DNA of 39,231 nt from a virus. Below the pieces are notes generated by a model. It made no database searches and was not told where the DNA came from. It was given only the letters and a program-made list of their open reading frames with translations. The stretch's first letter is position 1. Every line of letters starts with the position of its first letter. The translations under genes were made by a program, and so were the position numbers. Shown piece after piece: positions 18,487 to 29,029 of the stretch. The stretch is from positions 1 through 39,231 of the IMG/VR virus record IMGVR_UViG_3300006802_000032, one strand, 5' to 3'.

Positions 18487-18580
18487 GCCCGCATTGGTGC
18501 TTCGCTTCGGAGCGTGATTGAGCCGGGAAAGTCCCTAACCGTCAACGCTGACGGGACCGAAGCGGAGCCCCTATGCGGGC
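18487..18580 (+). repeat. 94-bp structured element, copy 1 (inverted relative to copy 2)
   Basis: Reads the same as the reverse complement of 18960-19053 except for position 6 and a central stretch of about 18 bases. The first 24 bases pair with the last 24 (21 Watson-Crick pairs plus one G-U in this orientation). Inside are a GGGA/TCCC pair and an apical hairpin CCGTCA-ACGC-TGACGG. The element lies between two minus-strand genes just after an SD-like GGAGGC. It could be a small mobile palindromic element or a structured RNA. Confidence 0.85.
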
Positions 18581-18595
18581 GGCCTCCGATGGAAT

Positions 18596-18928: not shown

Positions 18929-18959
18929 CTTAGCGGCCTCCAATCAGTTTCTAAAATCC

Positions 18960-19053
18960 GCCCGCATAGGGGCTCCGCTTCGGTCACGCCACATATGGGC
19001 GCTAGGGACTTTCCCGGCTCAATCACGCTCCGAAGCGAAGCACCAATACGGGC
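18960..19053 (-). repeat. 94-bp structured element, copy 2
   Basis: The inverted partner of 18487-18580. The outer arms are nearly identical to copy 1, but the apex differs in sequence and still pairs (CGCC with GGCG around CATATGT in this orientation). The flank on the 3' genomic side carries GGCGGCCTCCGAT in both copies. It is placed between the stop of the gene at 19063 and the ribosome site of the gene at 18928. Confidence 0.85.
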
Positions 19054-19062
19054 GGCCTCCGA

Positions 19063-19272
19063 TCAGTTTGTCTCAAACCCGTCATTGTAGGCGCCAACGT
19101 CGCGGAAATAGTAGTCAGGACCATCCTCGGGCTTCGACCCATCGCAGTAGAAATAGCCCTGACTGTACGTCGCGCGAACTGGCTTCTTGTGCAGCGGGTT
19201 TGCAGCGTTCGGATACAGAGTGACGGACTGTCCGTCCCTGAGGTTTTGGAAGTCTGTTCGTAGCGTCTTCAT
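19063..19272 (-). CDS. Conserved small phage protein (YPNAANPLHKKP type)
   Basis: A 69-residue protein, first gene of the leftward set, with a strong ribosome site (AGGAGG) before ATG 19272. It contains VTLYPNAANPLHKKPVRATY and GYFYCDGSKPEDGPDYYFRDV, a compact beta-rich signature I recognise from many alphaproteobacterial phages. Its function is unknown. The stop codon falls inside the motif AACTGATCGGAGG that recurs before other early genes here. Confidence 0.75.
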   Translation of the reverse strand: MKTLRTDFQNLRDGQSVTLYPNAANPLHKKPVRATYSQGYFYCDGSKPEDGPDYYFRDVGAYNDGFETN

Positions 19273-24476: not shown

Positions 24477-24748
24477 TGTTTGTTATCCCATAAGCGCCGA
24501 TGCTCATCGGCATCGACCAGCATCCGGCAGAATGCCTGAACTCCGATTGTGTTCATGGCCAATCCCTGCGCCGTCATAACCATGGCCATTAGCGCTATTT
24601 CTACCCCGCGCGGGTGCGACTTCAGGCCGTGACGTGCGCCCGATGCGCGAAGTTCTCTCAGCATATCTGAATGCACTGCATGGGTCAATTTTCCGATCTC
24701 AATGGCGTCCATTGCCGCTTGGTCGATTGTTTGGTCTTGTTTGCTCAT
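24473..24748 (-). CDS. Helical hypothetical protein
   Basis: A 91-residue protein in the coupled leftward operon, sharing ATGA overlaps with the genes on both sides. It contains an alanine- and methionine-rich helix (GVEIALMAMVMTAQGLAMN) that could pack against a membrane or a partner protein. No motif is recognised. Its position beside the DUF1367-like and HNH genes suggests an accessory role in DNA metabolism. Confidence 0.6.
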   Translation of the reverse strand: MSKQDQTIDQAAMDAIEIGKLTHAVHSDMLRELRASGARHGLKSHPRGVEIALMAMVMTAQGLAMNTIGVQAFCRMLVDADEHRRLWDNKQ

Positions 24749-25218
24749 GCCGCACCTGCCGTCTCTTTGAGTAGATTGTTTGCCGGCATGCCGGTTTCAG
24801 CCTCGATCACCGCTGCAACTTCATCAAACAGCGCGCACGCTGCTTTGTGATCGAGCTTGTCGAACGCAATCGACTTCGGCCGAAACACCACAAGCACGTC
24901 ACCATGAATCACCGGCACCGCGTAGCTGCCGGCCGCTCTGATTGACGCCTCCGCAAGCAACATCGCGCGTTCCTTGTTGATGCCGGTCAGCGGTATCGAT
25001 GCCCCGATTTCGCGATGCCCAGCCTTCATCTGCAACCATTTGCGAAGTTCTTCCGAACTGGAAAATTGCCGCTTGTGACTTTCCGGCCAGTGATGGAACG
25101 CCGCGCTGATCAGCGCGAAGTAGCGGCGGTGTTGTTCGACCGAGCGCGGCTTGGCACGCGCTGGGCACGACGCGCACATTTCAGCCGGCCTTACGCGCGC
25201 TCGGTCAGAAATGCTCAC
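24745..25218 (-). CDS. DUF1367-like / NinB-like recombination-region protein
   Basis: A 157-residue protein with an N-terminal cysteine pair (MCASCPARAKPRS). The core has SVEQHRRYFALISAAFHHWPE, then SSSEELRKWLQMKAGHRE and a C-terminal VFRPKSIAFDKLDHKAACALFDEV. These blocks are typical of the DUF1367 and NinB-type proteins found beside recombinases in phages; they bind single-stranded DNA or support annealing in some cases. The identification is by pattern, so moderate. It overlaps its neighbours by four bases. Confidence 0.6.
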   Translation of the reverse strand: MSISDRARVRPAEMCASCPARAKPRSVEQHRRYFALISAAFHHWPESHKRQFSSSEELRKWLQMKAGHREIGASIPLTGINKERAMLLAEASIRAAGSYAVPVIHGDVLVVFRPKSIAFDKLDHKAACALFDEVAAVIEAETGMPANNLLKETAGAA

Positions 25219-25490: not shown

Positions 25491-25644
25491 GCTTTTCCCC
25501 GTGCACTTTCCAAACCCAATACTTGATCTGATCACGCGATATTACGGCAGGAAACTCCTTCCGGCGCCGACGCATCAGCACAACGATGTCATCGACGCCA
25601 TAGCCCTGGATCGCGTACATAACTATGGTCGTGTGATAGGTCAT
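25438..25644 (-). CDS. Small helix-turn-helix-like protein
   Basis: A 68-residue protein starting MTYHTTIVMYAIQGYGVDDI at ATG 25644, overlapping the RecT stop by four bases. The pattern of a short helix, a turn and a second helix (GVDDIVVLMRRRRKEFPAVI then SRDQIKYWVWKVHGE) is that of a small helix-turn-helix domain, and the C-terminus is basic. A DNA-binding role is likely. The last 53 bases overlap the start of the H-NS-like gene. Confidence 0.6.
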   Translation of the reverse strand: MTYHTTIVMYAIQGYGVDDIVVLMRRRRKEFPAVISRDQIKYWVWKVHGEKHAGQHEHKAASRVERPR

Positions 25645-26414
25645 TCGGTCGCCGATTTCTCCCGCTTGGCTTCTTCAATCATCTCGATTGCATTCGTGCG
25701 CCCGTCCTCATCCATCGCCATGATGGCCGTGGCGTATTCCTTCTCGACTTTAGCGGCTGGCTTGCTCTGCAACGCCTTCTCGATATCCCGCAGCACGGCG
25801 GCCTGATCGTCGGCGGTCGGCTCGTCTGGAATGTCGGGAAGGTCTAGCGGCGTCGGCCTGGCCGGTGTGATGTCTTTCGGCTCGCCTTGCCATTGGTCGA
25901 ACTCGTCGCGGTCCATGAGACCGGCAAAGCCGAACGCATAGCGCGCCGCCTGCGTCAGCGCGCGGTGGCGCATCATGCGCTTGGGCGAGGTCTTCCAGAC
26001 AGATCCACCAGCACGGCTGCACTCGTCGAAATACTCCGTCACCCGCATCTGGTGCTTGCGATCCTTGCGGTAGATGATGCAGGTGCAGGAAATCGGCTCG
26101 CCCGTGTCGGTCAGAGCGTCGATGAACTCGATTCCATCAAACTGCGGGTGCTCGTTGCACTTCTTCATCCAGCCGTCGACCGAGACAATCGGCTGAATGC
26201 CGTTGTTCTTCGTCCGCATGAAGTAGATTTCCTTCGTGAGCGGGTTCAACCCATGCTCACGGGCGACGAGACAGCAAGATACGAACTCCTCGTCGGTGTG
26301 GGGTGACGGCATCGCGACCTTGCGAAAGGTCACGATGAACGCCAGCGCGTCGAGCTTGTAGAAGCCGGCCAGTTCGCCAATTGCCGGCATCTGCGCGATG
26401 ATGTCGTTGCTCAT
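25641..26414 (-). CDS. RecT/Bet-type single-strand annealing protein
   Basis: A 257-residue protein of the phage Bet/RecT annealing family. The N-terminal 180 residues contain the family core: FVSCCLVAREHGLNPLTKEIYF, then QPIVSVDGWMKKCNEHPQFDG, then a strand-rich region with CTCIIYRKDRKHQMRVTEYF, and RMMRHRALTQAARYAFGFAGL. The tail is proline-rich and then helical. It pairs complementary single strands during recombination and replication of the phage genome. The usual partner exonuclease is not found in this window. It overlaps both adjacent genes by four bases. Confidence 0.85.
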   Translation of the reverse strand: MSNDIIAQMPAIGELAGFYKLDALAFIVTFRKVAMPSPHTDEEFVSCCLVAREHGLNPLTKEIYFMRTKNNGIQPIVSVDGWMKKCNEHPQFDGIEFIDALTDTGEPISCTCIIYRKDRKHQMRVTEYFDECSRAGGSVWKTSPKRMMRHRALTQAARYAFGFAGLMDRDEFDQWQGEPKDITPARPTPLDLPDIPDEPTADDQAAVLRDIEKALQSKPAAKVEKEYATAIMAMDEDGRTNAIEMIEEAKREKSATE

Positions 26415-27367
26415 ACCGCGACCTTCTCATCGAAGCTCCGCACGCCGGGCACTGTCGCGCCAGCTCGCGCTTGCGCAAACGCCACCTTTTCGACGGCAGC
26501 GCGCACGTCAGGATGCGTTTTGACGTGTGCTAGGGCGGCCTCGTAGTCGGCCAGATCGTAGCGGGTGATCGTGCGCAATCCGGCCTTCTTGCCACGTTGT
26601 CCGCCAGCGCTGACCTTGACATCGGCCGGCGCCACAAATACGGGCGCTTCAAGCGGCAGCGGCGGCTCGTCATTCGGCGCAGCGGCGGCAGCCTTTGCGG
26701 CTTCCTCCTGCTGGCGCTTGAACTCTGCCATGCGCCGTTCGTTTTCCTCGCGCGCCTTGCGTTCTGCTTCGGCCCGCGCCTTGGCTTCCTCGGCGGCCAG
26801 ATACTTCGACAGCGCATCACGCAACTTGTCGGCCGCAGCCTTGGCGTCATCGACGAGCGGCTTGTATTCCGCATTGATCTTGCGTTGTGCTTCTAGGTGC
26901 GGGCGCACCTTGGCATCGCGTTCGGTGTCCGCCTTCTTGCTCAGATCAAGCAGCTTGGCGCGATAGTTCGCAGCCATGTCGGCAGTCGTCTTATCGACGA
27001 TGCCGGTGGTGGTGAGCCACTGCAAAGCCTGATCGCGCGCTTCGCTGATTTCCTCGGCCAGCGTGAGATCGCCGGAGTTGTGCCCAATGGTCGGCACGTC
27101 GCCGGGCCATAGACCAGTGTCGAATGCGTGCTTGGCCGCATCCTTCGCGACGGGATTGCCGGCGCAATACGTCCAGATTTCATGCGCGTCGCGCACCTTA
27201 TCCGCGACACGACAGACGATCTCGCCGTCCTTTTCCCAGATCGCGACCGGCAGCCAAGGGCCATCCTTGCCGGCGCGCGTCTTGAAGTAGCCGGACTGCG
27301 GCTCGTTGACATTGATCGGCGGGTTCTTTCCTGCGAGCGCATCGCGCCACCATTGCCATTGATCCAT
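26411..27367 (-). CDS. Coiled-coil protein of the RecT operon, function unknown
   Basis: A 318-residue protein from ATG 27367 (MDQWQWWRDALAGKNPPINV). The first 70 residues have a beta-rich part with YFKTRAGKDGPWLPVAIWEK. A long coiled coil follows at about 110-230, rich in K, E, A and R (KADTERDAKVRPHLEAQRKI, EEAKARAEAERKAREENERR). The C-terminal domain (GLRTITRYDLADYEAALAHV to PGVRSFDEKVAV) resembles that of many RecT-operon proteins. It is common in rhizobial phages and may be a partner of the annealing protein. No catalytic residues can be named. Confidence 0.7.
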   Translation of the reverse strand: MDQWQWWRDALAGKNPPINVNEPQSGYFKTRAGKDGPWLPVAIWEKDGEIVCRVADKVRDAHEIWTYCAGNPVAKDAAKHAFDTGLWPGDVPTIGHNSGDLTLAEEISEARDQALQWLTTTGIVDKTTADMAANYRAKLLDLSKKADTERDAKVRPHLEAQRKINAEYKPLVDDAKAAADKLRDALSKYLAAEEAKARAEAERKAREENERRMAEFKRQQEEAAKAAAAAPNDEPPLPLEAPVFVAPADVKVSAGGQRGKKAGLRTITRYDLADYEAALAHVKTHPDVRAAVEKVAFAQARAGATVPGVRSFDEKVAV

Positions 27368-27444
27368 CACCAATCCCCCCAAGCCAGAGCCAGCACCGGA
27401 AGCGCCACGACACACAGCGCCATCACTGCAAATGTGATCATCAT
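27367..27444 (-). CDS. 25-residue membrane peptide coupled within the operon
   Basis: The ATG overlaps the upstream stop by four bases (ATGA) and the TGA overlaps the next ATG by one base (TGATG), so coupling is exact. The peptide (MMITFAVMALCVVALPVLAL...) is a single hydrophobic helix. It may only carry translation from one gene to the next or act as a small membrane protein. Confidence 0.6.
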   Translation of the reverse strand: MMITFAVMALCVVALPVLALAWGDW

Positions 27445-28340: not shown

Positions 28341-28550
28341 TTAAATCACGTCTTTGATACGCAGTCGGTGCTCATCCTCGTAACTTTCCGGGGATGGCCG
28401 CCATGTGTCGGGCTCGACGATGTTTCCGCCGCATGAACAAAGACCGCGCGGCCATGACAGCGGATAGTCGGCGCCGCACTCGTCGCAGCACAGCAAAGGG
28501 CAGTCGTCGCAGGCCCCGTCGCAACCGTCGTCTTTGATGCATCCGCTCAT
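28341..28550 (-). CDS. Cysteine-rich zinc-binding protein, first gene of the leftward operon
   Basis: A 69-residue acidic protein with nine cysteines in MSGCIKDDGCDGACDDCP and LLCCDECGADYPL, then LCSCGGN. It looks like a zinc ribbon or small metal cluster protein. The ribosome site AAGGAGGCG before ATG 28550 is the best in the region. It directly follows a structured leader RNA, so its translation, and that of the operon, may be regulated by that RNA. The function of the protein itself is unknown. Confidence 0.65.
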   Translation of the reverse strand: MSGCIKDDGCDGACDDCPLLCCDECGADYPLSWPRGLCSCGGNIVEPDTWRPSPESYEDEHRLRIKDVI

Positions 28551-28574
28551 CGTCGCCTCCTTAACCGAACCACC

Positions 28575-28680
28575 ACCGGACGCCGCGCCTAGCAGGTCTC
28601 CCCGCTACCTGGGCGGCGGCTTATGCTCGACTTGCGGGGGACTAGTCCGACCCATCGAGCACCAGGAAGCGGCGTCCGGT
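28575..28680 (-). ncRNA. Structured 5' leader RNA of the leftward operon
   Basis: A perfect 12-bp stem (ACCGGACGCCGC at 28575-28586 with GCGGCGTCCGGT at 28669-28680) closes a 106-nt element. Inside, on the minus strand, GCTCGA pairs with TCGAGC, enclosing the palindrome GGACTAGTCC, and CAGGT pairs with ACCTG. The likely transcription start falls at about 28682, so the RNA begins at the stem. It ends about 14 bases before the ribosome site. A riboswitch or protein-bound leader is plausible; no known class is recognised. Confidence 0.65.
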
Positions 28681-28688
28681 GTAGGTGC

Positions 28689-28717
28689 ATACTGTAGCAC
28701 GGCCGCTAACGTGTCAA
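28689..28717 (-). promoter_or_regulatory. Leftward early promoter
   Basis: On the minus strand TTGACA (28717-28712), a 17-base spacer and CAGTAT (28694-28689) match a sigma-70-type promoter. TCAACA/TGTTGA half-sites at 28714-28719 and 28745-28750 form an inverted repeat over the -35 and could be an operator. Confidence 0.65.
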
Positions 28718-28765
28718 CATTAAATTTAGCGTACAGGCTACAATTGTTGATAACTCAATCTGAGC

Positions 28766-28794
28766 TTGACGTGTAGGCGCAATGCTAATATGGT
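28766..28794 (+). promoter_or_regulatory. Rightward early promoter
   Basis: TTGACG (28766-28771), a 17-base spacer and TATGGT (28789-28794). The start point expected at about 28801 coincides with the ATG at 28802, so a leaderless message is likely. Confidence 0.65.
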
Positions 28795-28801
28795 GCCACA
28801 C

Positions 28802-29029
28802 ATGACAACCGAGCGTGAAAAATTGCTGGCAGAGGTCGAGGCGTTCCTTGAGCGTCACGACATGCCGCCTTCCAACTTTGGGCGGCAGGCGATGTCCGAT
28901 GCGACGTTTGTCTTTGACCTTCGCAAGGGCCAGGACATCAAGCTATCGACTGCGGATCGGTGCCGGCGCTTCATGGCGGAGTACAAGGCGCCAAAGGCGA
29001 GGCGCGCCGAAAAAAACGTCGCAGCGTGA
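28802..29029 (+). CDS. Small probable regulator, likely leaderless
   Basis: A 75-residue protein from ATG 28802 (MTTEREKLLAEVEAFLERHD); ATG 28790 is in frame but lies in the -10 region. No ribosome site precedes it. The sequence LERHDMPPSNFGRQAMSDAT followed by FVFDLRKGQDIKLSTADRCR resembles small helix-turn-helix regulators of rhizobial phages that have a FG..A..D..FV..L..G pattern. It is the first gene of the rightward early operon and could control the divergent promoters at 28.7 kb. Confidence 0.7.
   Translation: MTTEREKLLAEVEAFLERHDMPPSNFGRQAMSDATFVFDLRKGQDIKLSTADRCRRFMAEYKAPKARRAEKNVAA

What the first reader, a model, noticed from the sequence alone, without database searches (positions are those of the whole stretch)
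28575..28717. Structured leader RNA starting at the predicted transcription start of the leftward operon
The promoter TTGACA-17-CAGTAT predicts a start at about 28682. The next bases begin a perfect 12-bp stem that closes a 106-nt multi-branched element ending just before the AAGGAGG site of the first gene. This is the architecture of a riboswitch or protein-responsive leader, in front of a recombination operon. No known class is recognised.
Basis: partly seen in the sequence, partly recalled or inferred. Interest (0 to 1): 0.75.

Follow-up and report, generated by a model that had tools for sequence, protein, structure and literature searches.

The report
Stem-closed leader RNA of phage operon
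The messenger RNA for this virus's DNA-recombination genes appears to start with its very first bases zipped into a long double-stranded stem, a design that recurs with compensating sequence changes in many related viruses of alphaproteobacteria and probably shields the RNA's front end, although its job is untested.

Summary
On the minus strand, TTGACA-17-CAGTAT (28717-28689) predicts a start near 28682. Bases 28681-28574 form a 108-nt element closed by a perfect 13-bp helix, 11 nt before AAGGAGG (z -3.6). It is not isolated. I found 18 leaders (about 15 distinct arm pairs) in uncultivated phages. A 12-16 bp helix starts 4-8 nt after the -10 box and ends 14-29 nt before the first start codon. 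Most share AUCACC/GGUGAU at the base. Higher pairs covary: the first nine are intact in 18/18, permutation P below 5e-5. Where enough sequence was held, the operon nearly always carries an ssDNA-annealing protein (RecT/Bet or Erf).

The interior (36-82 nt) has no shared sequence, fold or Shine-Dalgarno pairing, and the first gene varies. That argues against a riboswitch. I favour an operon-level 5'-terminal helix that sequesters the mRNA's 5' end and leaves the ribosome site outside it (0.45). A put-like antitermination RNA or a protein-binding helix remain possible. Rfam has no match; six named phages and bacterial genome samples gave none. Limits: no mapped start, and the window's copy lacks the AU base and is missed by the covariance model.

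The parts
28689..28717 (-). Leftward promoter: -35 TTGACA (28717-28712), 17-nt spacer, -10 CAGTAT (28694-28689)
   Evidence: sequence; same spacing and position in relatives
28669..28681 (-). 5' arm of the closing helix, CACCGGACGCCGC, starting at the predicted transcription start
28587..28668 (-). Interior of the leader, 82 nt; predicted hairpins at 28662-28623 and 28606-28591; not conserved among relatives
28574..28586 (-). 3' arm of the closing helix, GCGGCGTCCGGTG
28556..28562 (-). Shine-Dalgarno AAGGAGG of the first gene, outside the helix
   Evidence: (core AGGAG 67% unpaired in the predicted ensemble)
28341..28550 (-). First gene, 69-aa cysteine-rich protein without family match
26411..27415 (-). 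Operon gene matching phrog_10477 (annotated exonuclease)
25641..26414 (-). Operon gene: RecT/Bet single-strand annealing protein
24745..25218 (-). Operon gene: NinB/Orf-like recombination mediator
28745..28753 (-). DnaA-box-like TTATCAACA between the divergent promoters (TTATCCACA in L005, L014, L185, L010)
28766..28794 (+). Divergent rightward promoter TTGACG-17-TATGGT
28802..29029 (+). Divergent small gene, Cro-like by position and size only (not tested for a family); its ATG lies 7 nt after the -10 box, so its mRNA would be leaderless or nearly so

Best explanation
The element is a cis-acting 5' leader of the leftward (recombination) operon in a group of temperate-type alphaproteobacterial phages. 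Transcription starts at or within about 2 nt of the first base of the 5' arm, so the nascent RNA folds into a closed domain with its own 5' end in a 12-16 bp helix and the SD just outside the far arm. I infer that the helix works as an operon-level 5' cap: it denies single-stranded 5' nucleotides to RppH-type pyrophosphohydrolase and 5'-end-dependent RNase E, packs away the upstream untranslated region, and leaves the ribosome site accessible, giving a durable message whatever gene comes first. Shown by computation: position, helix, covariation, operon association, variable interior. Inferred: the start site, the nuclease shielding, the gain in expression.
For: The helix starts 4-8 nt after the -10 box and ends 14-23 nt before the ATG in the six loci measured, up to 29 nt in others. 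Arms pair within each locus (12-15 bp) but mostly not between loci (6-8, at most 11 outside one pair with shared arms). The first nine pairs are intact in 18/18 leaders; permutation P <5e-5. 96.8% of cells are paired, 6 pairs change on both sides, covariation score reached by 0/500 shuffles; RNAalifold recovers the same stem from a sequence-only alignment. Helix probability is at least 0.94 in 17/18. In the pattern-scan set, pairing longer than the pattern demanded goes with a -10 box plus SD and start (Fisher P 1e-7). Interiors vary. The same leader precedes different first genes. Annealing-protein genes lie downstream. 5'-terminal stems stabilise some E. coli mRNAs and impede RppH (PMC3997798).
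Against: A bare hairpin would do for protection, yet every leader keeps 36-82 nt inside, and the AUCACC/GGUGAU base is conserved in sequence as well as pairing, which suggests recognition. L185 loses the helix in the ensemble once 60 nt of downstream mRNA is included (0.04). Predicted SD accessibility is mixed (0.18-0.95). Nothing on RNA stability was measured, and RppH/RNase E action in these hosts is assumed.
Confidence: 0.45

Rival explanations
1. A put-like RNA: the nascent leader binds RNA polymerase and makes it resist pauses and terminators across the long leftward operon, without a protein, as HK022 putL does at its pL.
For: Same place: putL lies just downstream of PL, is about 70 nt, and its first paired residue is nucleotide 3 (PMC9378689). 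Tied to the operon, not to one gene. Sequence-conserved helix base.
Against: putRNA is two tandem stem-loops; this is one closed domain. No conserved interior that a polymerase-binding RNA should keep. No intrinsic terminator in 53 kb of downstream sense sequence. No copy of the same architecture found on the divergent transcript.
Confidence: 0.18
2. A protein-responsive leader: a phage or host protein binds the AUCACC/GGUGAU helix beside the SD and controls translation of the first gene.
For: Helix base conserved in sequence; helix abuts the ribosome site in most members.
Against: First gene is not conserved; no candidate RNA-binding protein shared by the phages was identified; window and L001 deviate at the base.
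Confidence: 0.17
3. An RNase III processing site, like the stem in the phage lambda N leader: cleavage removes the leader and frees the message for translation.
For: A long perfect helix just upstream of the SD at the start of an early left operon. The lambda comparison is from my own knowledge; no paper was found.
Against: 12-16 bp is short for a typical RNase III substrate (own knowledge), and the SD is not held inside the helix.
Confidence: 0.08
4. A riboswitch or attenuator sensing a ligand or translation of a leader peptide.
For: Multi-branched fold with z -3.6; short reading frames exist in some interiors (sequences).
Against: No conserved aptamer, no SD pairing beyond chance (mean z 0.06), no terminator, no Rfam match, no SD before the short frames.
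Confidence: 0.04
5. A DNA-level inverted repeat (operator or replication-origin part) rather than an RNA; a DnaA-box sequence lies close by.
For: DnaA box TTATCCACA between the divergent promoters of several members.
Against: Pairing is kept through G-U pairs in several members, arm spacing varies by tens of bases, and the arms sit exactly between predicted start and SD.
Confidence: 0.05

Closest known systems
HK022 putL RNA
   Same: structured cis RNA at the very start of the early left transcript of a temperate phage; operon-wide position
   Different: two tandem stem-loops with conserved polymerase contacts, not a single closed helix with a free interior; antitermination not shown here
5'-terminal stabilising stems (ompA, papA type)
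   Same: 5' end base-paired or close to it, SD downstream, gene-independent effect
   Different: those are simple hairpins of cellular mRNAs; here a 12-16 bp helix encloses 36-82 nt and has a sequence-conserved base
Lambda N-leader RNase III stem (from memory)
   Same: stem upstream of the SD in an early left operon
   Different: lambda's lies further down the leader and is tied to N and nut; no such protein or site identified here
P1/P7 c4 and P4 CI antisense RNAs (from memory)
   Same: folded RNA made from a phage leader
   Different: they pair with targets in the same phage; no complementarity of 11 nt or more beyond chance in the window

Membership tests
Any Rfam 15 family | score at or above gathering threshold | tested here: not met
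   no match in the window; only a chance lncRNA hit at E 7.9; only tRNAs in ten loci with leaders
HK022 put RNA | two tandem stem-loops | tested here: not met
   single closing helix in all 18; definition from PMC9378689
HK022 put RNA | location immediately downstream of the early left promoter | tested here: met
   start site predicted only
HK022 put RNA | antitermination through the RNA polymerase beta' zinc-binding domain | not testable with these tools
   needs transcription assay
Riboswitch | conserved aptamer core | tested here: not met
   interiors share no sequence or fold
Riboswitch | expression platform (terminator or SD sequestration) | tested here: not met
5'-terminal stabilising stem | 5' end paired at the transcription start | tested here: met
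   by predicted start and fold, 17/18 with helix probability at least 0.94
5'-terminal stabilising stem | prolongs mRNA life | not testable with these tools
   needs half-life measurement
c4/CI antisense RNA | complementary target in the same phage | tested here: not met
   (window only)
AUCACC-base leader group defined here | closing helix at predicted start, SD just after, operon with annealing protein | tested here: met
   window:
AUCACC-base leader group defined here | AUCACC/GGUGAU base and match to covariance model R1 | tested here: not met
   window has CACC/GGUG only, and R1 does not match its leader at E up to 1

The most novel reading that the evidence does not exclude
A recurrent protein-free RNA element at the head of alphaproteobacterial phage recombination operons that modifies RNA polymerase or recruits a host factor through its conserved AUCACC/GGUGAU helix, a put-like class outside the lambdoid phages.
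Probability: 0.15. Interest if true: 0.8.

Novelty: new variant of a known kind. Interest (0 to 1): 0.58.

Why it matters
It turns a single predicted fold into a leader group with covariation support in many uncultivated phages, tied to the recombination operon whichever annealing protein it carries. If it protects or licenses the message, it is a portable 5' cap for alphaproteobacterial expression and a handle on early gene control in phages whose regulation is little studied. If it acts on RNA polymerase, it is a new antitermination class.

Tried and rejected
Rfam at gathering and permissive thresholds. Antisense targets in the window. SD pseudoknot with the interior. Intrinsic terminators. 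Leader peptides: short frames in several interiors but no SD before them. CUAG motifs near the 3' arm: present in some members, absent in others. C-rich interior as a Rho site: interiors are C-skewed overall (P 6e-5) but the window is not. L002 has a 12-13 bp stem upstream of its operon but no clear promoter and a long gap to the start codon, so I left it out. Bacterial genome samples: by pattern in a class sample, by covariance model (hits inspected) and by promoter plus arms in an order sample gave no member with the full architecture. Six named phages with similar recombination operons gave no leader in the stretch fetched. Leader BLAST against named phages and plasmids gave nothing useful.

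Full report
Check of the observation. The window is a 39-kb virus record. On the minus strand the promoter TTGACA-17-CAGTAT (28717-28689) predicts a start near 28682. AAGGAGG follows 11 nt later and the first ATG is at 28550. The fold is stronger than shuffled sequence (z -3.58, 1 of 200 as good). Rfam has nothing. The operon behind it encodes an exonuclease-annotated protein, a RecT/Bet annealing protein and a NinB-like mediator. A small divergent gene, Cro-like by position, lies on the other side.

Relatives. RecT, exonuclease and regulator searches brought in viral loci. Several carried a long stem in the same place although BLAST found no similarity between the leaders. A detector built only on architecture (-35, -10, stem starting 3-9 nt after the -10 box, SD and start codon soon after) found 7 cases in 3.7 Mb of strand sequence and none in reversed sequence, one of them new (L007). 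Of 102 distinct matches, those whose pairing ran on past the seven specified pairs were strongly those with a -10 box and an SD plus start codon, neither of which was specified (Fisher P 1e-7); none of 27 matches in bacterial genomes had that architecture.

Covariation. In six loci found mostly without the pattern, each 5' arm pairs with its own 3' arm over 12-15 bp but mostly over 6-8 with those of others (at most 11, apart from L185 and L014, which share arms). In 18 leaders (about 15 distinct arm pairs) the first nine pairs are intact in every one, with several pair types at positions 6-9, and permuting 3' arms never reached the observed pairing in 20,000 trials. On a 13-sequence MAFFT alignment 96.8% of cells pair, six pairs change on both sides and no shuffle of 500 reaches the covariation score; RNAalifold on the same alignment finds only this stem. 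The first seven pairs were specified by the pattern in part of the set and say little there; the pairs above them were not specified. Members are not all independent: L282 and L343 are identical, L005, L015 and L016 share one leader, and L014, L185, L349, L370 and L377 share one arm type.

Context. Members with enough sequence downstream carry a single-strand annealing protein in the same direction: RecT/Bet-like in the window, L175 and L343 by profile and L001 by tblastn, and Erf-like in L280, L331, L349, L357, L367, L370 and L377, often with a YqaJ exonuclease. L320 (about 2 kb held) showed a DUF6745 protein and no annealing protein, and L300 and L368 were too short to judge. GcrA, an alphaproteobacterial regulator, occurs in four of fifteen leader records tested and weakly in the window. 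L015 and L016 have identical leaders and different first genes. In L014 and L349 a copy of the 3' arm, GGCGCGGCGGTGATGCT, sits again before the second gene, as if first genes are exchanged as cassettes behind the leader.

Mechanism. What is conserved is the helix, its place at the start site and the SD beside it. What is not conserved is everything inside: length 36-82 nt, sequence and fold. Interiors do not pair with the SD beyond chance (mean z 0.06), no terminators were found, and the first gene varies. That argues against a ligand-sensing riboswitch and for an operon-level function of the helix itself. The simplest is protection of the 5' end, as known for 5'-terminal stems in E. coli (PMC3997798); I hold it at 0.45. 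HK022 putL occupies the same position (PMC9378689) but has a different topology. The sequence-conserved AUCACC/GGUGAU base is the main fact the protection model does not explain and keeps polymerase- or protein-binding models alive.

Limits. No start site is mapped. The window's own leader has CACC/GGUG but not the AU pairs below it, and the covariance model built from 13 relatives does not find it; its membership rests on geometry, helix and operon. In L185 the helix is lost from the predicted ensemble when 60 nt of downstream mRNA is added. Distance from helix to start codon reaches 27 nt in L343 and 29 nt in L357, so the helix does not abut the SD equally closely in all. Six named phages with related operons lack the leader in the stretch fetched, and genome samples gave no member, so its range is uncertain.

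Noticed in passing
window 18490-18590 (+) and 18955-19065 (-): Two inverted, nearly identical copies of a roughly 95-nt element that folds at about -59 kcal/mol, with a hairpin that differs between copies but is self-complementary in each. No Rfam or named-phage match.
   Followed up: partly
L185:4298-4487, L014:1175-1364, L370:10111-10300 (-): A conserved, apparently structured region on the divergent (rightward) transcript after the Cro-like gene in several leader phages; no Rfam match in L185. Not seen in the window.
   Followed up: partly
window 28745-28753 and the same place in L005, L014, L185, L010: DnaA-box sequence (TTATCCACA; TTATCAACA in the window) between the divergent promoters.
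   Followed up: no
L014 and L349, before the second gene: A repeat of the leader's 3' arm (GGCGCGGCGGTGATGCT) before the second gene's SD, suggesting cassette exchange of first genes.
   Followed up: partly
window 28766-28802 (+): The divergent Cro-like gene has its ATG 7 nt after the -10 box, so its message would be leaderless or nearly so.
   Followed up: no
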